A DNA stretch of 23,903 bases from a virus, in IMG/VR virus record IMGVR_UViG_3300009008_003208, positions 1-23,903 of that record, one strand, 5' to 3'. The notes below the pieces were generated by a model, which saw only the letters and a program-made list of their open reading frames with translations, made no database searches and was not told the origin of the DNA. The position numbers were made by a program, and so were the translations under genes. Positions 15,031 through 23,864 of this stretch are shown here, piece after piece (position 1 is the stretch's first letter; every line of letters starts with the position of its first letter).

Positions 15031-17391
15031 ATGAATGAGGCCGACACCTGTCGTCGCTACGTGGTTCCCAAGCTTCAGGAAGCAGGCTGGGACGACGAAC
15101 CACATCGCATCAACGAGCAGGTGACCTTCACGGACGGGCGTATCGTCGTGTCTGGACGCAAGGGCCATCGTCGACCGGGCAAGCGTGCTGACTACATCCT
15201 CCGCTACCGGGCGGACATGCCGATAGCCGTGGTTGAGGCCAAGCCCTCCTACGCGACCCCTGGCCAGGGGCTGCAACAGGCGAAGGAGTACGCAGAGATC
15301 CTCGGCCTCAAGTTCGCCTATGCCACGAACGGTCGCGGCATCATTGAGTTCGACTACACCACCGGCCGGGAAAGAGAGGTCGATGTCTTTCCCGAGCCGG
15401 ACGAGCTGTGGGCGCGTGTCACGGCCGCTGAGTCCCTAGCCTCCGAGGCCGTGGAGACGCTCCTCACTCCCGCCTACCGCCTCGCTGGGAAGTCCCCACG
15501 GTACTACCAGGAAATCGCCATCAATCGCGCCGTTCAATCCGTGCTCCAGGGACGACGTCGGATTCTGCTCACCATGGCCACGGGGACGGGCAAGACCTTT
15601 GTAGCATTCCAGATCTGCTGGAAGCTCTGGTCTTCCCGCTGGAACCGGACGGAAGAGTACCGCCGGCCACGCATCCTCTATCTGGCCGACCGGAACATCC
15701 TGGTAGATGATCCCATGGCCAAGACCTTCACAGCATTCGGTGACGCGCGCTGGAAGATCACCGGCGGCGTCGCCAACAAGAGCCGGGAGATGTATTTCTC
15801 CATCTACCAGGCAATCGCACGCGACGATCGCCGCCCGGGTCTTTACCGCGAGTATGCGCCCGGGTTTTTCGATCTGATAGTCGTGGACGAGTGCCACCGT
15901 GGAAGTGCCAAGGATGAGAGCAACTGGCGGGAGATCCTCGAGTACTTCAGCCCGGCCTTCCAGATTGGGATGACTGCGACGCCCCGTCGAGATGATAACG
16001 CGGACACTTATCGGTACTTCGGCGATCCGGTCTACCAATACAGCCTGCGCCAGGGCATCGAAGACGGTTTCCTCGCCCCCTACCGCGTTCACCGAGTGAT
16101 CACATCCTGGGATGCAGCTGGTTGGCGTCCCAGCCACGGGGACCTGGACCGCTTCGGTCGCGAGATCCCGGATGAGGAGTATCACACCAACGACTTCGAG
16201 CGGGTGGTATCACTGCGCGCGCGGACGGAGGCGGTCGCGCGCCACGTAACCGAGTACATGAAGAAGACAGACCGCTACGCCAAGACCATCGTGTTCTGTG
16301 TGGACCAGGAGCACGCCGACGAGATTCGTCGTGCCCTGAACAATCTGAACGCGGACCTCGCACGAGCGCACCCTGACTTCGTGTGCCGAGTGACATCGGA
16401 TGAGGGCGGGGTAGGTCGAGGGCACCTAAGCAACTTCCAGGATGTGGAGAGGCGCACTCCGGTGATCCTCACCACCTCGCAGATGCTGACTACCGGAGTG
16501 GATATGCCGACGGTGCAGAACGTAGTTCTCGTCCGCGTCATCAAGTCGATGACCGAGTTCAAGCAGATCATCGGGCGGGGCACACGTGTTCGCGACGACT
16601 ACGGCAAGCTGTTCTTCAGCATCTTGGACTACACAGGCTCGGCGACCCGCCTGTTCGCCGATCCCGACTTCGACGGAGACCCCGTCATTGAGACGGAACA
16701 ACGGATCGACGAAGAAGGCCGGCCCACCGAGGGCGAGGTTGTGCTTACTCCCGAAGAGCCGTGGGAAGATATGGAGCGAGTTGCGGAGTCGGAGATTCCT
16801 TTCGGGGAAGACCGCCCGCGTAGGAAGTACTACTTCGACGGGGGTCATGTCGAGATCGCGTCTCATTTGGTCTACGAGCTCGACGCCGACGGCAAGCAAC
16901 TTCGCGTGATCAGCTTCACCGACTACACAGCTGAGCGGGTGCGGACTCTCTTCACCAATGCAGCGGACCTCCGCAAGGGGTGGGCTGACCCGGACCGTAG
17001 GACGCAGATCATCGACAGACTAGCGGAGCGCGGAATCGACTTCGACCAGCTGGCGGAGGCGGCGAATCAACCTGGCGCAGATCCCCTCGATCTCCTCTGC
17101 CACTTCGCGTTCAATGCTCCTCTAAGGTCGCGACGCGAACGGGCGCAGCGCCTCCGCTCTGAGAAGAAGGACTTCTTCGAGCAGTACGGACCGGAGGCTA
17201 GGGAGATCCTAAACGAATTGCTGGACAAGTACACGGAGCACGGCGCGGCGCAGTTCGTCGTGCCCGATGTGCTGGAGGTGCCCCCGATCAGCGAACGAGG
17301 CAATGTGATCCAGATCGCCCGCTATTTCGGAGGCGAGGACAGACTGGCAAGGGCCGTCAGGGAGTTACAGACGCTACTGTACGCGGCATAG
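15031..17391 (+). CDS. hsdR: Type I restriction enzyme R subunit (HsdR)
   Basis: This 786-residue protein is the motor and nuclease subunit of a type I restriction complex. It translocates unmodified DNA and cuts it at a distance. An N-terminal PD-(D/E)xK nuclease is visible (RADYILRY with D54, then AVVEAKPSY with E69 and K71). Superfamily 2 helicase motifs follow: Walker A ATGTGKT at 183-189, DECH at 286-289, TATP at 315-318, and IIGRGTRVRDDYGK around 513-525 as motif VI. The C-terminal 270 residues are charged and resemble the EcoEI-type R C-terminus, which contacts the methylase core. It is compact but within the range for EcoEI-like R. It is followed by hsdM nine bases later. Confidence 0.97.
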   Translation: MNEADTCRRYVVPKLQEAGWDDEPHRINEQVTFTDGRIVVSGRKGHRRPGKRADYILRYRADMPIAVVEAKPSYATPGQGLQQAKEYAEILGLKFAYATNGRGIIEFDYTTGREREVDVFPEPDELWARVTAAESLASEAVETLLTPAYRLAGKSPRYYQEIAINRAVQSVLQGRRRILLTMATGTGKTFVAFQICWKLWSSRWNRTEEYRRPRILYLADRNILVDDPMAKTFTAFGDARWKITGGVANKSREMYFSIYQAIARDDRRPGLYREYAPGFFDLIVVDECHRGSAKDESNWREILEYFSPAFQIGMTATPRRDDNADTYRYFGDPVYQYSLRQGIEDGFLAPYRVHRVITSWDAAGWRPSHGDLDRFGREIPDEEYHTNDFERVVSLRARTEAVARHVTEYMKKTDRYAKTIVFCVDQEHADEIRRALNNLNADLARAHPDFVCRVTSDEGGVGRGHLSNFQDVERRTPVILTTSQMLTTGVDMPTVQNVVLVRVIKSMTEFKQIIGRGTRVRDDYGKLFFSILDYTGSATRLFADPDFDGDPVIETEQRIDEEGRPTEGEVVLTPEEPWEDMERVAESEIPFGEDRPRRKYYFDGGHVEIASHLVYELDADGKQLRVISFTDYTAERVRTLFTNAADLRKGWADPDRRTQIIDRLAERGIDFDQLAEAANQPGADPLDLLCHFAFNAPLRSRRERAQRLRSEKKDFFEQYGPEAREILNELLDKYTEHGAAQFVVPDVLEVPPISERGNVIQIARYFGGEDRLARAVRELQTLLYAA

Positions 17392-17400
17392 GGAAAGAAC

Positions 17401-18972
17401 ATGGCGAAGCGCAGAAGGAAATCACAGGAACCCAAGACGACGGCTGAAAGACTCGGTCACATCATCAAGTCCTGCCGCAACATAATGCGCAAGGACAAGG
17501 GCCTGTCCGGAGACCTCGACCGCCTGCCGCTCCTCACGTGGGTGATGTTCCTCAAGTTTCTCGACGACATGGAGGAGATTGAGGAATCCAGGGCCAAGAT
17601 GCGGCGTGCCAGGTACAGGCCGACTATTGAAGCACCCTACCGCTGGCGCGACTGGGCCGCTCAGGAGAGCGGGATCACCGGGCCGGAGCTAGTTGCCTTC
17701 ATCAACCAAGACGAGGCCGTCAGACCTGACGGCTCAAGGGGTCCAGGCCTCTTCACGTACCTGAGCGGGCTGCAGAACGGTCCAACCAGTCGCAAGCGGG
17801 TGATCGCAAGTGTCTTCAGCCGTCTAACGAACCGTATTCAGTCCGGCTATCTGCTTCGGGACGTCATAAACGCTGTCAACACGATCCACTTCGAGTCCAA
17901 GGACGAGCTCTTCACCCTCGGCCATCTTTACGAGTCCATGCTGCGGGAAATGCGGGACGCGGCAGGAGACTCGGGCGAGTTCTACACGCCGCGCCCAGTG
18001 GTCAGGTTCATGGTCGAGGCAGTCAACCCGCTCCTCGGGGAGGTGATTCTGGACCCGGCCTGCGGGACAGGCGGGTTCCTTGTCGAGGCATTCAACCATC
18101 TAAGCAAGCAGGTGAAGACCGTCGAGGATCGAAAAGCGCTTCAGCAGCAATCGATCTTCGGCGGAGAAGCCAAGCCTCTGCCGTACTTGCTCTGTCAAAT
18201 GAACCTCTTGCTTCACGGGCTTGAAGCGCCGCGGATTGACCCAGAGAACAGCCTACGGTTCCCGCTCAACGAACTCGGCGACCGTGACCGCGTTGACGTG
18301 ATACTCACCAATCCGCCATTCGGCGGAGAGGAGGAGCGTGGCATCCTCAGCAACTTCCCAGAGGACAAACAGACCACTGAAACTGCCTTGCTCTTCCTCC
18401 AGCTCATCATGCGCAAGCTCAAGCGCAGGCCGAGACCCGGTCGAGCGGCAGTTGTCGTGCCCGACGGGACGCTCTTCGGTGACGGCATCTGCGCTCGGAT
18501 CAAGGAGGAACTGCTCACCAACTTCAACCTTCACACGGTCGTCAGGCTTCCACAGGGCGTATTCGAGCCGTACACACCCATCCAGACGAACCTGCTGTTC
18601 TTCGACCGGGCCCATCCCACGGACGTGATCTGGTACTACGAGCATCCGCTGCCCGAAGGACGTAAGAAGTACACGAAGACCAGTCCGTTGGAGTCGGAGG
18701 AGCTGGTGGACCTCCTGAAGTGGTTCAACGCTCGTAGCCGGCAGGAGAGCGCCCATGCTTGGAGAGTCGAGGCGCGGGATGTCCTTGCAAACGGTTGCAA
18801 CCTCGATATCAAGAATCCGCGCGGGGCGGAAGCCCTTGAGCATATCCCGCCCAAGCAGCTCGCGGCGAGCATCGCAGACAAGAACAGACTTGTCGGCGAG
18901 ATCCTAGAGGAGATCAGGTCTGTCTTGGACGAGCCCGTAGCCCCTGCCGGGGGAAGCGACGATGGCGAGTAG
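17401..18972 (+). CDS. hsdM: Type I DNA methyltransferase M subunit (HsdM)
   Basis: This 523-residue N6-adenine methyltransferase acts with HsdS to protect host sites. An N-terminal helical domain (about 15-140; LTWVMFLKFLDDMEE) is typical of HsdM. Catalytic motifs follow: EFYTPRPVVRFMVEA at 196-210, DPACGTGGF (SAM binding) at 218-226, and NPPF (catalytic) at 304-307. The C-terminus (about 480-523) is helical and charged for contact with S. No premature stop is present. It starts 10 bases after the hsdR stop and overlaps hsdS by 11 bases, so the three subunits are coupled. It looks active. Confidence 0.98.
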   Translation: MAKRRRKSQEPKTTAERLGHIIKSCRNIMRKDKGLSGDLDRLPLLTWVMFLKFLDDMEEIEESRAKMRRARYRPTIEAPYRWRDWAAQESGITGPELVAFINQDEAVRPDGSRGPGLFTYLSGLQNGPTSRKRVIASVFSRLTNRIQSGYLLRDVINAVNTIHFESKDELFTLGHLYESMLREMRDAAGDSGEFYTPRPVVRFMVEAVNPLLGEVILDPACGTGGFLVEAFNHLSKQVKTVEDRKALQQQSIFGGEAKPLPYLLCQMNLLLHGLEAPRIDPENSLRFPLNELGDRDRVDVILTNPPFGGEEERGILSNFPEDKQTTETALLFLQLIMRKLKRRPRPGRAAVVVPDGTLFGDGICARIKEELLTNFNLHTVVRLPQGVFEPYTPIQTNLLFFDRAHPTDVIWYYEHPLPEGRKKYTKTSPLESEELVDLLKWFNARSRQESAHAWRVEARDVLANGCNLDIKNPRGAEALEHIPPKQLAASIADKNRLVGEILEEIRSVLDEPVAPAGGSDDGE

Positions 18973-20113
18973 CTGGCCGAGAGTGCCCATTGGTGAAGTC
19001 GCACACCCCGTTCGACGTCCGGAGAGTCCTGTTCCGGGACACGGATATCGGCAAATCGGGGTCCGCCTCTGGGGAAGAGGCGCGTACGAGCGAGAGATGC
19101 TCGACGGCTCAGCGACGCGGTACTCCGTGCTCTATCGCGTCGAGGCTGACGACATTATCGTCAACAAGATATGGGCTCGCCATGGCAGCGTCAGTGTAGT
19201 TCAGGATGGTCTCGCAGGATGCTACTGCTCGGGGGAATTCCCCCTCTACAGGCCGAACTCATCGGCCTTGCTACCGCGGTGGTTCTACTGGATTACAAGA
19301 GCGCGTTGGTTCTGGTCTGCCTGTGAGAGCGCTTCGCGGGGCACTACTTCCAAGAGCCGCATCCGCCCGGAAGCCTTCGCTGCAATCAGCATTCCATTGC
19401 CGGACCCAGCAGAGCAGGAACGTCTCATCGTCAAGCTCGATACCTTGGCGACAAAGCTGGAGCACGCCCGCGATAGCTATCTGCAGATGGAACAGGAAGC
19501 CGAAGCCCTTCTCCGCAGTGTTATTGCGCGGATCGTCTCAGGTGCACCTCTGCGCAAGATGGATGACGTGGCGCCGCTGGTACGCCGCCGAGTCGCGATT
19601 CGCCCGGGCGAGGAGTATCCTGAACTCGGCATTCGTTCCTTCGGGAAAGGGACGTTTCACAAGCCCGCACTCGACTTCCTGAGCGTTGGCACGAAGCGGC
19701 TCTTCTGCATAGAACCCGGCGATCTCCTTTTCAGCAATGTCTTCGCGTGGGAGGGAGCAATCGCCGTTGCCGGACCAGAGGACGAAGGGCGCTTCGGGTC
19801 ACATCGTTTCATCAGCTGCGTGCCGAAGGAAGGAGTCGCAATTCCGGAGTTCCTGTGCTTCTACTTCCTGACGAGGGCGGGACTTCGGAGAATCGGCGAG
19901 GCCGCGCCGGGGGGAGCCGGAAGGAACCGGACCCTCGGGCTTGCGAAGCTCGCGGAGATTGAGGTTCCCGTCCCGGAATACGACAAGCAGATCTGGTTCA
20001 ACCGCCTCCGGGCGAAGGTGAGCGAGATGCTGGCGTCGCAGCGGGACGCGGAAGCCGAACTTGACGCCATGCTGCCGTCGATCCTGGACAAGGCGTTCGA
20101 AGGGGAACTGTAG
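18962..20113 (+). CDS. hsdS: Type I specificity subunit (HsdS)
   Basis: This 383-residue protein sets the recognition sequence. Two target recognition domains (about 1-145 and 195-335) are each followed by a helical coiled region (about 150-192 and 340-380). The two domains resemble each other: IGVRLWGRGAYER...VNKIWARHGSVSVV and LGIRSFGKGTFHK...LFSNVFAWEGAIAVA share positions. Each probably reads one half of a bipartite target. It has both domains, so it is full-length. It starts 11 bases inside hsdM. Translation likely depends on coupling plus a GGGGGAAG upstream. Confidence 0.95.
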   Translation: MASSWPRVPIGEVAHPVRRPESPVPGHGYRQIGVRLWGRGAYEREMLDGSATRYSVLYRVEADDIIVNKIWARHGSVSVVQDGLAGCYCSGEFPLYRPNSSALLPRWFYWITRARWFWSACESASRGTTSKSRIRPEAFAAISIPLPDPAEQERLIVKLDTLATKLEHARDSYLQMEQEAEALLRSVIARIVSGAPLRKMDDVAPLVRRRVAIRPGEEYPELGIRSFGKGTFHKPALDFLSVGTKRLFCIEPGDLLFSNVFAWEGAIAVAGPEDEGRFGSHRFISCVPKEGVAIPEFLCFYFLTRAGLRRIGEAAPGGAGRNRTLGLAKLAEIEVPVPEYDKQIWFNRLRAKVSEMLASQRDAEAELDAMLPSILDKAFEGEL

Positions 20114-20204: not shown

Positions 20205-21236
20205 ATGAATGTCCGTGAAGCCGCGATTCGGGTGCTCCAAGAAGCAGGAGAGCCCTTGCACTCGAAGGAGATTACAACCCGAATACTCAAGGCTAAGCTC
20301 TGGGAATCAGATGGCAAGACCCCGGAAGCTACGGTCAACGCTGCGCTCTCGGTCGACATCAAACGTAACGGCGATCGATCGTCCTTTGTCCGCCTATCCC
20401 CAGGCGTCTTCGCTCTTCGCGACGCAGCTGCGACCGGGCGGAGCCGAGACACCAGGACCTCAGCCCGCAAGGGCAGGAAACAGAGGTACTCATTCACAGA
20501 CGCTGCCCAGCGTGTTCTAGAGCGCTTCGGCGACAAGCAGCCCATGCACTATCGGATCATCACCGAGAAGGCGCTCGAGCAAGGCTGGCTGGCCACCGAA
20601 GGGAAGACCCCTGAGGCAACGATGTACGCCCAGATTCTGACTGAGATCCGTCGCTATCAGAAGCGTGGTGAGCAGCCCCGGTTCGTACAGCACGGCAAGG
20701 GATATGTGAGCCTCTCCCGGTGGATGGGTCGCGGCCTGGCATTCGAGATCGAGCAGCATAACAAGAAGGTCCGACAAGCTCTCCTGAACAGACTCCTTAA
20801 GATGAGGTGGGAGGAGTTTGAGGAGCTCATCGCTCGCATGTTAGCGGAGATGGGGTTTGAGGAGATCGAGATGACAGGCCGGGGCGGAGATGGAGGCATC
20901 GATGTGCGAGCCACTCTCGTTGTTGGTGAGGCCATTCGTACCCGGATGGCTGTGCAGGTGAAGAGGTGGAAGAGAAATGTACAGGCACCAGTCGTCCAGC
21001 AAGTTCGAGGCAGCCTTGGGGCCCATGAGCAGGGCCTTATCGTCACCACGAGCGACTTCTCCCCGGGAGCGCGTCGCGAGGCGGCTCGGCCAGACGCGAT
21101 CCCTGTTGCACTGATGAACGGAGAGCAGCTGGCCATTCTACTCGCAGGCAACGGGATCGGGGTCGTACGCCGGTCCCACGACCTGATAGATCTCAGCGAC
21201 GATGATGACGAGAGCGATGCTCATACAGAGCTCTAG
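20205..21236 (+). CDS. Mrr-type restriction endonuclease with two HARE-HTH-like domains
   Basis: This 343-residue protein has three parts. Residues 1-75 and 95-175 are two related winged-helix units. The first has AAIRVLQEAGEPLHSKEIT, WESDGKTPEATVNAALS and FVRLSPGVFAL. The second has AAQRVLERFGDKQPMHYRIIT, WLATEGKTPEATMYAQIL and FVQHGKGYVSL. This is the HARE-HTH pattern, a module often found with Mrr and chromatin proteins. Residues about 200-320 form an Mrr catalytic domain with FEELIARMLAEMGF, GGDGGIDV (D233), and AVQVKRW (Q251, K253). Mrr-type enzymes often cut modified DNA (type IV restriction), so this may target invading DNA with foreign methylation. The C-terminal tail is acidic (SDDDDESD). 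It lies 91 bases after hsdS and is likely in the same cluster. Confidence 0.85.
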   Translation: MNVREAAIRVLQEAGEPLHSKEITTRILKAKLWESDGKTPEATVNAALSVDIKRNGDRSSFVRLSPGVFALRDAAATGRSRDTRTSARKGRKQRYSFTDAAQRVLERFGDKQPMHYRIITEKALEQGWLATEGKTPEATMYAQILTEIRRYQKRGEQPRFVQHGKGYVSLSRWMGRGLAFEIEQHNKKVRQALLNRLLKMRWEEFEELIARMLAEMGFEEIEMTGRGGDGGIDVRATLVVGEAIRTRMAVQVKRWKRNVQAPVVQQVRGSLGAHEQGLIVTTSDFSPGARREAARPDAIPVALMNGEQLAILLAGNGIGVVRRSHDLIDLSDDDDESDAHTEL

Positions 21237-21319
21237 CATCATGGTGCTCGTGCGCATCGGGAGTGGTCACGTGCCCGCGTCGGAGCACTGAGGATCCAGC
21301 AAGCAGAGAGGCCACGTTG

Positions 21320-22411
21320 ATGACAGCTCCGAAGGAGACAGTCTGGAGCCTCGACCCGCACACCGCAGCCAAGCATGAGATCCTGCGATGCTATCTCCAA
21401 GCGTGGTTCCCGATCCTCAACAGCTATCATGATCGCATCATCTACATCGATGGCTTCGCGGGGCCTGGGCGGTACGAGGGCGGAGAGCCAGGTTCGCCCA
21501 TCATTGCTCTGGATGTCGCAGCTAGCCACCGACGACACCTGTCCGGCGAGTTGGTGTTTTGGTTCATTGATGAGCGCGAGGACAGAATAGAGCACTTGAA
21601 GAAAGAGCTCGCGGGGAGGACGGTGCCCCGCCATTTCAGAGTGCAGGCGGAAGCAGGCAAGTTCCACGAGAAGGTCGGCCCCGTGTTGGAGTCCCTAGAG
21701 TCGAACAAGGCCAGCATCGCTCCCACGTTCGCGTTCATAGATCCGTTTGGCTTCTCTGGCATTCCGTTCTCCCTGATACAGCGCCTGCTCAAGCAACGAC
21801 GTTGTGAGATACTGATCACATTCATGGTCGACGCGCTGAATCGCTTCCTTGAGCATCCTAGGGACGGCGTGGTCCAGCACATCGTTGACGCCTTTGGCAC
21901 TGATGAGGCCATCCAGATTGCCAGAGACGGCGGCGACCGGATCGTTGGGCTGCGGACGCTGTACCAATCGCGACTGCAGCAAGCCGCCGAGTACGTCCGG
22001 TACTTCGAGATGAAAGACCGGACCAACCGTACTCAGTATTACTTGTTCTTCGCGACGAACCACGAACTGGGGCACCTGAAGATGAAGGAGGCGATGTGGC
22101 GAGTTGACCCAGATGGCGAGTTCCGATTCTCAGACGCCACGGATCCGAACCAACGGGTCCTATTCGAAGCTGACCACACGCGGCCGCTCGTCTCGCAGCT
22201 ACGAAACGAGTTCGTGGGCAGGGGGATCGTCACCGGAGTCCAGGTGCGCACGTTTGTAGAAGACAGGACAGCGTACCTGAAGAAGCACATGACGAAGGCC
22301 CTCCGTGAAGAAGAGGATGCTGGGCGCATCACAGGTGAACGCACCAAGGTCGGCGGGGGTGCTCGAAGAGCCAACACGTATCCCGATGACGTGAGGCTTA
22401 GGTTCCTGTAG
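21320..22411 (+). CDS. tcmP: Three-Cys-motif partner protein TcmP
   Basis: The chosen start is ATG 21320 (MTAPKETVWSLDPHTAAKHE), giving 363 residues. A longer frame from 21263 adds poorly coding sequence, and a GAGAGG precedes 21320. The TcmP family is named because it is often encoded next to a Gp37/Gp68 three-cysteine protein, as here. The sequence shows a methyltransferase-like fold: a helix, then YIDGFAGPGRYEGGEPGSP (about 42-60), WFIDEREDRIEHLKKEL, and AFIDPFGFSGIPF (about 138-150). The C-terminal third is charged. The function of the pair is unknown to me. Location beside restriction genes suggests defence or nucleic-acid modification, which is inference only. Confidence 0.9.
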   Translation: MTAPKETVWSLDPHTAAKHEILRCYLQAWFPILNSYHDRIIYIDGFAGPGRYEGGEPGSPIIALDVAASHRRHLSGELVFWFIDEREDRIEHLKKELAGRTVPRHFRVQAEAGKFHEKVGPVLESLESNKASIAPTFAFIDPFGFSGIPFSLIQRLLKQRRCEILITFMVDALNRFLEHPRDGVVQHIVDAFGTDEAIQIARDGGDRIVGLRTLYQSRLQQAAEYVRYFEMKDRTNRTQYYLFFATNHELGHLKMKEAMWRVDPDGEFRFSDATDPNQRVLFEADHTRPLVSQLRNEFVGRGIVTGVQVRTFVEDRTAYLKKHMTKALREEEDAGRITGERTKVGGGARRANTYPDDVRLRFL

Positions 22412-22509
22412 TGTCAGGAGCCCGATCGCACCAGAAGCTCGATGTCCCCACGACGGAGATACGCAGGCCCTTTCCTAGTGGGGTCAGGTAACAAGCGAAC
22501 GGAGAGCCC

Positions 22510-23244
22510 ATGAGCAAGGAATCGGCAATCGAGTGGACCGACTCCACATGGAATCCGGTGACCGGTTGCACTAAGGTCAGCCCGGCCTGCAAGAACTGCT
22601 ATGCTGAGACCTTCGCAGAGCGATGGAGAGGAATCCCCGGCCACCCCTACGAGCAAGGCTTCGACCTGCGTCTCTGGCCTGATCGTCTCGAGCTTCCCCT
22701 GGCCTGGAAGAAGCCTCGCATGATCTTCGTCAACAGCATGAGCGACCTGTTCCACGAGGAGGTTCCCTACGCGTTCATCGCGAGTGCATTCCGTACGATG
22801 GAGAAAGCGTCGTGGCACGTGTTTCAGGTTCTCACCAAACGGTCTGAGAGACTGGCCGAACTCGCTCCCAGACTGGCGTGGCCTCCCAATGTGTGGGCCG
22901 GCGTGTCGATTGAGACGGCTGACTACCTCCAGCGAGCAGATCACCTTCGTGAAGTGCCGGCGGCGATCCGATTCCTGTCGCTGGAGCCACTGCTGGGACA
23001 CCTGGGCGCCATCGATCTATCTGATATCGACTGGGTGATCGTAGGCGGAGAGAGCGGGCCTCGAGCTCGGCCCATGGAGGCGGCTTGGGTAAGAGACATC
23101 CATAGACAGTGCCGCCGAGAAGGCGTTCCGTTCTTCTTCAAGCAGTGGGGGGGCACACAGAAGAAGAAGAACGGGCGTAGCCTGGACGGCCAGACCTGGG
23201 ATGGAATGCCGAACTACCGTGCGCTGAGTGTGATGACGCCCTGA
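22510..23244 (+). CDS. DUF5131 (phage Gp37/Gp68) three-cysteine protein
   Basis: This 244-residue protein begins MSKESAIEWTDSTWNPVTGC, typical of the Gp37/Gp68 family. Three cysteines, C20, C27 and C30, follow the pattern C-x6-C-x2-C. Radical-SAM enzymes use a related C-x3-C-x2-C to hold a 4Fe-4S cluster, so a radical or metal centre is plausible but unproved. FVNSMSDLFHEEVPYAFI, WHVFQVLTKRSERL, WAGVSIET, and WVIVGGESGPRARP are further family hallmarks. It lies 98 bases after TcmP in the same direction, the usual pairing for these families. The ribosome binding site is CGGAGAG. Confidence 0.9.
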   Translation: MSKESAIEWTDSTWNPVTGCTKVSPACKNCYAETFAERWRGIPGHPYEQGFDLRLWPDRLELPLAWKKPRMIFVNSMSDLFHEEVPYAFIASAFRTMEKASWHVFQVLTKRSERLAELAPRLAWPPNVWAGVSIETADYLQRADHLREVPAAIRFLSLEPLLGHLGAIDLSDIDWVIVGGESGPRARPMEAAWVRDIHRQCRREGVPFFFKQWGGTQKKKNGRSLDGQTWDGMPNYRALSVMTP

Positions 23245-23255
23245 GTCGGGTTCGC

Positions 23256-23864
23256 CTACCCAGTGTGTTCAACCAGCTCCTGGAACCGAATCCTCTGCTC
23301 GGCAGGACTCGCCAGTGCCACCACAGCACGCAGTGAACGCTCGCTGATCTCAGGCCGACCGACCGTCTCCGACATTGCCAGTATATGTTCTCGGATCTCC
23401 GGCGCCAGCCGCAGCAGAGCCATGATCTGGGTCACCCGAGCCCGCGTGATTCCCTCGCGCCGTGCAATCGCTGCCTGGGTTTCGACCTCGCCCGCGTCAA
23501 GCTGGAGCTGCCACTCAAGGGCCATTTGGAGGAGTTCAACCACTCGGGGCGTCTTCGGCTTCCTCGGCGGCTTGGGCTTGCCCCGAGGCTCTGGCAAGGC
23601 GCTGATGACCTTGTCCGCGGCCACCCTCCGCGTGAGCGTGCCCAGGTTGCCCTTCTTGAACGCCCCCTTCGGGCCTAGCGTGACCTCGACCGTCTGGTCG
23701 CAGTAGGTCGCGCCGACCGCGCCATCTCTACCATCCAGGGCCACGTGCCGAATCCGGAACCAGACCTCTGTCTGGGCCCGGCCCCGCCTGCGTCGAATAC
23801 TGTTACATTCGGGGAGCCAGATTGCAGAAAGGCCCCAGTCCTGATAGACCGGGGCCTCTGTCAT
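23256..23864 (-). CDS. HTH protein of the type found beside serine recombinases
   Basis: The frame gives 202 residues from ATG 23864, with AGGAGA four to five bases upstream. Residues about 115-175 form a helix-turn-helix: VETQAAIARREGITRARVTQIMALLRLAPEIREHIL. Proteins with this ARVTQIM pattern are often encoded next to large serine recombinases. A Lys/Pro-rich segment lies at about 93-105. The N-terminal 40 residues are odd because a strong hairpin occupies codons 3-12, so the real start may be further in, for example at a GTG inside HVALDG. It is convergent with the DUF5131 gene, with only 11 bases between stops. I infer a role in integration or its regulation. Confidence 0.6.
   Translation of the reverse strand: MTEAPVYQDWGLSAIWLPECNSIRRRRGRAQTEVWFRIRHVALDGRDGAVGATYCDQTVEVTLGPKGAFKKGNLGTLTRRVAADKVISALPEPRGKPKPPRKPKTPRVVELLQMALEWQLQLDAGEVETQAAIARREGITRARVTQIMALLRLAPEIREHILAMSETVGRPEISERSLRAVVALASPAEQRIRFQELVEHTG
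23830..23857. terminator. Terminator-like hairpin at the right end of the defence cluster
   Basis: The 7-bp stem AGGCCCC/GGGGCCT extends by three more pairs (GTC/GAC) past one mismatch around a CTGATA loop. Minus-strand T's (TTTCTG) follow it in one direction and CTCTGT in the other, so it may act both ways. It resembles the hairpin at 14607-14632 in its GACCGGG-GCCTCT side. It overlaps codons 3-12 of the HTH gene if that gene starts at 23864. Confidence 0.5.

What the first reader, a model, noticed from the sequence alone, without database searches (positions are those of the whole stretch)
20205..23244. Layered defence cluster: type I R-M, double-HARE Mrr and a TcmP/DUF5131 pair
Downstream of an intact hsdRMS set, in the same direction, lie an Mrr-type nuclease with two HARE-HTH-like domains, then TcmP, then a Gp37/Gp68 three-cysteine protein. 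All appear complete. Type I R-M blocks unmodified DNA and Mrr-type enzymes often cut modified DNA, so they cover opposite invaders. The role of TcmP with DUF5131 is not established to my knowledge. Finding it here hints at a defence or DNA/RNA-modification role.
Basis: partly seen in the sequence, partly recalled or inferred. Interest (0 to 1): 0.85.

Follow-up and report, generated by a model that had tools for sequence, protein, structure and literature searches.

The report
Prophage-borne methyltransferase and radical-enzyme pair
A bacterial virus genome carries ordinary DNA-cutting defence genes next to a widespread but untested two-enzyme pair, one methyltransferase-like and one radical-enzyme-like, that probably modifies nucleic acids and may help the virus's host fend off rival viruses.

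Summary
Downstream of an intact type I R-M set (15031-20113) lie, on the same strand and without internal stops, a double-HARE Mrr nuclease, TcmP and DUF5131 (20205-23244). The window is a virus record, so this is phage cargo. The three-layer cluster is not a conserved unit: no other locus I fetched has this Mrr, and methylase genes near TcmP do not clearly exceed chance (3 seen, 1.2 expected in one sample; 0 of 25 in another). The conserved unit is TcmP plus DUF5131. In two clade samples, 44 of 46 TcmP genes adjoin DUF5131; the other two sit at contig ends. Gene order varies, and one natural fusion exists. TcmP is predicted to be an RlmJ-fold methyltransferase; DUF5131 folds most like spore photoproduct lyase, a radical-SAM DNA-repair enzyme. 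DUF5131 is constant (54% mean identity), TcmP variable (23%). In viral contigs the commonest named neighbours of pairs are repressors and integrases; those of solitary DUF5131 are DNA methylases and replication proteins. Best reading: a mobile nucleic-acid modification pair, possibly defensive. PADLOC already lists it as unvalidated candidates (PDC-M30/M41), so this locus is a new member of a known but unexplained kind.

The parts
15031..17391 (+). hsdR, type I restriction subunit (EcoAI/FtnUII family)
   Evidence: NF046051 1055 bits, cut-off 550; DECH box and no internal stop
17401..18972 (+). hsdM, type I methyltransferase subunit
   Evidence: PF02384 E 1.4e-64; NPPF motif at residue 304
18962..20113 (+). 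hsdS, type I specificity subunit
   Evidence: PADLOC Specificity_I E 2.4e-100
20205..21236 (+). Mrr-type nuclease with two N-terminal HARE-HTH domains
   Evidence: PF05066 two stretches, PF04471 E 2e-29; GGDGGID and QVK motifs; PADLOC PDC-S02 E 1.8e-35
21320..22411 (+). TcmP, predicted RlmJ-fold SAM methyltransferase with a probable C-terminal winged helix (frame open from GTG 21263)
   Evidence: TIGR04474 223 bits; weak PF22560 GMT-wHTH, 22.8 bits against a cut-off of 27; AF2 pLDDT 94.8; RlmJ Z 16.5
22510..23244 (+). DUF5131 (Gp37/Gp68), predicted radical-SAM-type enzyme with CX6CX2C motif
   Evidence: PF07505 E 4.8e-101; AF2 pLDDT 91.5; spore photoproduct lyase Z 14.0

Best explanation
TcmP and DUF5131 form one functional module: a two-enzyme nucleic-acid modification system carried here as prophage cargo. 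SHOWN by computation: DUF5131 is predicted to have a radical-SAM-type fold with three invariant cysteines, closest to spore photoproduct lyase. TcmP is predicted to be a class I methyltransferase of the RlmJ fold, with an invariant Lys in its first helix and an invariant Asp in motif IV, the kinds of residue that are catalytic in RlmJ. In two clade samples TcmP was not found away from DUF5131 except at two contig ends, whereas DUF5131 often occurs alone. DUF5131 is conserved and TcmP is variable. INFERRED: DUF5131 does the constant chemistry, a 5'-deoxyadenosyl-radical reaction on a base or sugar, more likely in DNA because solitary viral copies sit among DNA-methylase and replication genes. 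TcmP works with or after it, methylating an exocyclic amine or choosing the target. INFERRED, less sure: because viral pairs often sit by repressor and integrase genes and some cellular pairs sit beside CBASS, R-M or Hna genes, the module serves the resident element by acting against rival phages. The type I R-M and Mrr genes next to it are independent cargo.
For: Adjacency: 24 of 25 TcmP genes in 289 genomes (Alphaproteobacteria) and 20 of 21 in 188 genomes (Myxococcota) adjoin DUF5131, the two exceptions lying 138 and 65 bp from a contig start. One natural DUF5131-TcmP fusion (L033, 534 aa). Structures; K18, G48 and D141 in 85 of 85 TcmPs of alignment A8; catalytic residues of RlmJ from passages of PMC3814359; all six sub-cut-off TIGR04474 matches in Alphaproteobacteria are RlmJ relatives, 31-43% identical to the E. 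coli protein. Constancy: 54% against 23% mean identity, DUF5131 higher in 190 of 190 comparisons of 20 pairs, Mantel r 0.52. Context: viral; cellular. PADLOC candidates PDC-M30/M41. In 100 P. aeruginosa strains PDC-M30 was predicted in 32, 68.8% of them phage-resistant, where the authors called a system prevalent in resistant strains from 52.5% (PMC10855318, passages); this is a correlation across strains that carry many systems.
Against: No experiment shows any activity. R-M enrichment is not significant (3 against 1.2, P 0.12) and nil in the alphaproteobacterial sample (0 of 25). There, PADLOC hits near pairs come from few proteins and the Pfam families listed are metabolic or generic. TcmP lacks the full DPPY motif (it has DPFG; 13 of 85 relatives have DQ) and could be a non-catalytic binder. 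DUF5131 misses the canonical CX3CX2C spacing and the general Pfam radical-SAM profile. DNA versus RNA is open: RlmJ and Trm1 act on RNA, spore photoproduct lyase on DNA. The RlmJ link is weak by sequence (E 0.03) and aligners place TcmP K18 a few residues away from RlmJ K18. The fusion is one MAG sequence. Tail, portal, terminase and DNA-helicase proteins also occur beside viral pairs.
Confidence: 0.5

Rival explanations
1. The pair is a tRNA/rRNA modification module (like Trm5 plus TYW1 on tRNA G37) that mobile elements carry to tune or protect translation, for example against RNA-targeting defences, rather than to attack phages.
For: TcmP resembles the RNA methyltransferases RlmJ and Trm1, and one Trm1 from a fetched genome has the same kind of motif, DPYG; DUF5131 also matches RlmN and TYW1 (Z 11.7 and 9.3). 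The Trm5/TYW1 precedent is recalled. Loss of the m6A-RNA methylases RlmF and RlmJ reduces T5 infection of E. coli (PMC11619597, abstract and outline).
Against: Solitary viral DUF5131 genes lie among DNA methylase and replication genes; the best fold match acts on DNA.
Confidence: 0.25
2. The pair is an R-M-like or toxin-antitoxin-like addiction module: one enzyme makes damaging radical lesions in nucleic acid and the other protects or repairs.
For: Adjacency is strict although order and orientation vary, as in type II R-M gene pairs (recalled); a methyltransferase-like protein is one partner.
Against: DUF5131 often occurs without TcmP (28 of 73 viral loci counted as paired or solitary with adequate flanks; 24 of 47 alphaproteobacterial genes, some of them partial), so TcmP is not needed to survive it; TcmP was seen without DUF5131 only at two contig ends.
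Confidence: 0.12
3. The pair makes a diffusible antiviral nucleotide, as viperins make ddhCTP, with TcmP processing the product.
For: Viperin-like enzymes are among the next structural matches after spore photoproduct lyase (Z 11.7).
Against: Spore photoproduct lyase ranks clearly higher (Z 14.0); a C-terminal winged helix in TcmP (weak Pfam match) suggests nucleic-acid binding.
Confidence: 0.07

Closest known systems
PADLOC candidate systems PDC-M30 and PDC-M41
   Same: Both components match: TcmP to PDC-M30A (E 7.1e-57), DUF5131 to PDC-M30B (6.6e-109) and PDC-M41B (7.3e-113)
   Different: Listed as unvalidated candidates, without a mechanism in the passages seen; here the folds, dependency direction and phage context are added
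RlmJ, 23S rRNA m6A2030 methyltransferase
   Same: Best structural match (Z 16.5 for RlmJ, 16.8 for its homologue 2oo3), motif I, GSP loop, Lys in first helix and motif IV Asp
   Different: Motif IV is DP(F/Y)G in most instead of DPPY, long forms have a C-terminal extension (probable winged helix), and TcmP is patchily distributed and paired with DUF5131
Spore photoproduct lyase
   Same: Best structural match of DUF5131 (Z 14.0, 194 residues, 2.8 A)
   Different: 12% identity, CX6CX2C spacing; lesion repair untested
Radical SAM mobile pair protein A (TIGR04471)
   Same: Weak sequence relative of DUF5131 (72 bits), also found on plasmids
   Different: Far below its cut-off of 355 bits
Type I R-M plus Mrr (type IV) restriction
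   Same: Neighbouring window genes are ordinary members
   Different: No conserved linkage to the pair

Membership tests
TcmP (TIGR04474) | Score over curated cut-off | tested here: met
   223 bits against 53
TcmP (TIGR04474) | Next to a three-Cys-motif protein | tested here: met
   DUF5131 98 bp downstream, CX6CX2C
PADLOC PDC-M30 | Both component models match adjacent genes | tested here: met
PADLOC PDC-M30 | PADLOC's own system rules and cut-offs | not tested
   rules not available in the tools
RlmJ family | RlmJ-type methyltransferase fold | tested here: met
   Z 16.8-15.8 for the ten RlmJ-family entries, next entry 14.5
RlmJ family | Catalytic Lys in first helix and Asp of motif IV | tested here: inconclusive
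   K18 and D141 in 85 of 85 TcmPs; motif IV Asp aligns with that of RlmJ but K18 is a few residues off in sequence alignments
RlmJ family | DPPY motif IV | tested here: not met
   window has DPFG; DP in 72 and DQ in 13 of 85, Gly at the fourth place in 80 of 85
Radical SAM superfamily | Radical-SAM-type barrel | tested here: met
   AF2 model matches many radical SAM enzymes at Z 8.5-14
Radical SAM superfamily | Canonical CX3CX2C cluster motif (spacing recalled) | tested here: not met
   CX6CX2C instead; all three Cys invariant in A9, 69 rows
Radical SAM superfamily | 4Fe-4S cluster and SAM cleavage | not testable with these tools
   needs protein chemistry
Spore photoproduct lyase | Closest fold | tested here: met
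   Z 14.0 against 11.7 for the next group
Spore photoproduct lyase | Repair of spore photoproduct | not testable with these tools
   needs assay
rSAM_mob_pairA (TIGR04471) | Score over curated cut-off | tested here: not met
   72 bits against 355
Viperin | Closest fold | tested here: inconclusive
   Z 11.7, in the second group
Type I R-M | Complete hsdR, hsdM, hsdS | tested here: met
Mrr type IV restriction | Mrr catalytic domain with GGDGGID and QVK motifs | tested here: met
   PF04471 102.5 bits against 21; motifs
Mrr type IV restriction | Cuts modified DNA only | not testable with these tools
   needs assay

The most novel reading that the evidence does not exclude
A radical-chemistry immune or immunity-like system: DUF5131 uses a SAM-derived radical to install, remove or destroy a nucleic-acid modification, and the fast-diverging TcmP, an RlmJ-fold methyltransferase, supplies target choice, so that lysogens mark or attack invading phage nucleic acid in a way unlike known restriction-modification or viperin systems.
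Probability: 0.2. Interest if true: 0.85.

Novelty: new member of a known kind. Interest (0 to 1): 0.5.

Why it matters
TcmP and DUF5131 occur in bacteria, archaea, plasmids and phages, and one database counts them as defence candidates, yet no mechanism was found in the papers searched. Predicting a methyltransferase that relies on a radical-SAM-type partner turns an anonymous pair into a testable nucleoside-chemistry question. The contrast between pairs near repressor and integrase genes and solitary copies near replication genes gives a ready experimental comparison.

Tried and rejected
A layered unit with Mrr: phmmer of the window Mrr at E 1e-5 against my simple gene calls from the 285 loci then held found only the window's own copy. 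Enrichment by N6-methylase distance: 3 of 47 loci against 1.2 expected, not significant (42 genomes behind 43 of the 80 loci; matches with E above 1e-8 left out, so a weak match 7 kb from TcmP in G002 is not counted); 0 of 25 in the alphaproteobacterial sample. A TetR distance control was abandoned because its list of matches was cut. Alphaproteobacterial PADLOC scan at E 1e-10, 149 of 156 neighbours of 20 pairs (one dropped as a misread frame over a DUF5131 gene, six by sampling) against 149 of 151 genes from 20 other places in the same genomes: 93 against 18 families, but many families come from one or two proteins and the case list is cut at 25, so I do not count it as enrichment; Pfam tallies show no restriction family among the first 25 of 137 for cases or of 148 for controls. 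A complex model through the fusion L033 was dropped because the mixed alignment laid TcmP rows over the DUF5131 half. Single-sequence PDB searches gave nothing useful for either protein. Scanning viral contigs with the window TcmP alone found no relative. Neighbours of 32 solitary DUF5131 loci (gene calls missed DUF5131 in 5) share no dominant alternative partner in blastp clustering; the largest clusters hold two.

Literature: DUF5131 in 0 papers. 'Three-Cys-motif partner' together with TcmP in two papers (20 of 394 papers holding either term were listed, the others listed using TCMP for other things; passages of the two); the term three-Cys-motif also in PMC7387457, seen only in a listing. 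PDC-M30 in two papers, PDC-S02 in four, PDC-M41 in none (passages of one). Further searches for a radical-SAM defence system of this kind listed nothing that looked relevant by title or start of abstract. 'Role not found' rests on these searches of open-licence papers only.
Full report
WHAT IS THERE. The window holds, on the + strand, hsdR (15031-17391), hsdM (17401-18972), hsdS (18962-20113), a double-HARE Mrr nuclease (20205-21236), TcmP (21320-22411, open from 21263) and DUF5131 (22510-23244), all without internal stops. The window is a virus record with a capsid-protease fusion, lambda-type portal, tape measure and endolysin, so the whole set is phage cargo. GC is 66.8% up to 14500, 60.7% over the hsd genes and 59.5% over Mrr-TcmP-DUF5131, which fits acquired cargo.

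THE PAIR IS THE CONSERVED UNIT. In 289 genomes of the class of G001, a Novosphingobium (Alphaproteobacteria by recalled taxonomy), TcmP passes its cut-off in 23 genomes, 25 genes; DUF5131 in 44 genomes, 47 matches. In 188 genomes of the phylum of G003, a Sorangium (Myxococcota, recalled), TcmP occurs in 19 genomes, 21 genes; DUF5131 in 34. TcmP lies within 1.2 kb of DUF5131 in 24 of 25 and 20 of 21 cases; the two misses start 138 and 65 bp from a contig start. Among the 80 genome loci kept as most similar to the window's DUF5131, out of 581 or more (so not a random sample), 69 are paired: 39 TcmP first, 26 DUF5131 first, 2 divergent, 1 convergent, 1 fused (L033). Of the rest, 4 are solitary with adequate flanks and 7 lie at contig edges. 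Of 80 viral loci found by DUF5131, 45 are paired (20 of them convergent), 28 solitary with adequate flanks and 7 at edges; of 9 viral loci found by TcmP, all 9 are paired. So TcmP depends on DUF5131, not the reverse, and linkage is kept although order is free.

WHAT THE PROTEINS ARE. The AF2 model of DUF5131 (pLDDT 91.5) is closest to spore photoproduct lyase (Z 14.0, 194 residues, 2.8 A), then viperin-like enzymes and RlmN at 11.7; Foldseek ranks the lyase first at E 5e-4. The three cysteines (CX6CX2C) are invariant in 69 rows. The general radical-SAM Pfam profile did not appear at E 0.1, so the assignment is structural. The AF2 model of TcmP (pLDDT 94.8) matches the ten RlmJ-family entries first (Z 16.8-15.8), then drops to 14.5. 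RlmJ is also the best methyltransferase hit of the TcmP profile among PDB sequences, though weakly (E 0.03; one unrelated bZIP chain scores E 0.022). All six sub-cut-off TIGR04474 matches in Alphaproteobacteria are RlmJ relatives, 31-43% identical to the E. coli protein. K18, G48 and D141 are present in 85 of 85 TcmPs of alignment A8. Passages of PMC3814359 show that RlmJ needs Y4, H6, K18 and D164. The Asp of motif IV lines up by sequence; the Lys does so only by motif context, since aligners put it a few residues off. Motif IV is DPFG; a Trm1 protein from one fetched archaeal genome has DPYG (L287), which hints at an exocyclic amine as target. The window TcmP also shows a weak C-terminal winged-helix match (PF22560, 22.8 bits, below its cut-off of 27).

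ASYMMETRY. In alphaproteobacterial pairs selected through TcmP, not through DUF5131, 20 of 23 loci had both genes long enough to compare. Mean pairwise identity is 54% for DUF5131 and 23% for TcmP; DUF5131 is higher in 190 of 190 comparisons, and the two identity tables correlate (r 0.52, 0 of 2000 permutations reach it). In the similarity-selected set of 120 pairs the correlation is weaker (r 0.16, 0 of 1000). A constant chemistry with a diverging partner fits TcmP as the target-choosing or second-step enzyme.

CONTEXT IN VIRUSES. Of 54 viral pairs, 48 passed my simple gene calls; 150 of the 255 genes within three genes of them were scanned with PHROGs. The largest families are a transcriptional repressor (10 members), integrases (5, 4, 3 and 2), transcriptional regulators (5), metallo-proteases (5) and a CI-like repressor (3); tail proteins (4, 4 and 2), DNA helicases (4 and 2), a DNA methyltransferase (3), portal and terminase (2 each) occur too (families can share members, 25 of 141 shown). 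Of 162 genes around 28 solitary viral DUF5131 genes, 150 were scanned: DNA methyltransferases, DnaB-like helicases, primases and replication initiators lead, and no integrase or repressor is among the 25 of 121 families shown. Gordonia phage Easley shows the first arrangement clearly: immunity repressor, TcmP, DUF5131, peptidase, HTH protein, integrase.

CONTEXT IN CELLS. 53 of the 80 genome loci passed the gene calls. Of 245 genes within 2.5 kb of these pairs, 150 were scanned and hit 110 PADLOC models at E 1e-25, including CBASS cyclase and phospholipase, capP, type I restriction and specificity subunits, a type III methylase, SIR2 and a ZorD-like helicase; 150 of 168 genes at least 6.5 kb away in the same loci hit 29 models. 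The counts are of models; from the 25 shown of each I read at least ten proteins against three or four. Of 13 annotated plasmid or phage regions read, three show recognisable defence genes close by: CBASS-like genes in S. meliloti, a type ISP R-M enzyme in Leptospira biflexa and N6 methylases in Rhizobium; a fourth has DUF262 genes. The others show mobile-element genes, helicases and hypothetical proteins. TcmP also lies next to Hna in S. meliloti (PMC12445080, passages).

RESULTS AGAINST A DEFENCE LINK. N6-methylase genes lie within 20 kb of TcmP in 3 of 47 loci where 1.2 are expected (P 0.12) and in 0 of 25 in the alphaproteobacterial sample. Near alphaproteobacterial pairs the Pfam families listed are metabolic or generic, and the PADLOC difference rests on few proteins. 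No other fetched locus carries this Mrr.

VERDICT. The R-M and Mrr genes are ordinary. The pair is a member of PADLOC candidate systems PDC-M30/M41; such candidates are described as not experimentally validated (PMC10855318, passages). My evidence gives it a likely biochemical identity and an order of dependency, not a proven function.

Noticed in passing
L033 9977-11581: One open frame of 534 aa in a Caldilineales MAG fuses DUF5131 (residues 9-251) to TcmP (265-517); the only fusion seen.
   Followed up: partly
L004 5329-9119 and L011 5334-9140: In two haloarchaeal plasmids TcmP pairs with a divergent radical SAM protein, with a second radical SAM gene on the opposite strand beside it.
   Followed up: no
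L020 3008-3490, L109 8897-10001, L118 4079-4588: Three solitary DUF5131 genes lie near a small protein that looks like DUF488 (name recalled); among loci with TcmP it was found only in L064, 2.7 kb away.
   Followed up: partly
L037 11191-12378: A solitary DUF5131 in a Nitrospira MAG sits near what looks like the N-terminus of a Cas9 (recalled resemblance).
   Followed up: no
L016 7935-11473: A P. aeruginosa plasmid has two different TcmP genes flanking a DUF5131 that reads as two separate open frames.
   Followed up: no
L045 10001-12911, L067 9998-12904, L013 6101-9323: Two TcmP genes accompany one DUF5131, suggesting several partners per radical enzyme.
   Followed up: no
23256-23864 (-): Last window gene, convergent with DUF5131, carries a ParB-type HTH and matches a PHROG recombinase family.
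   Followed up: no
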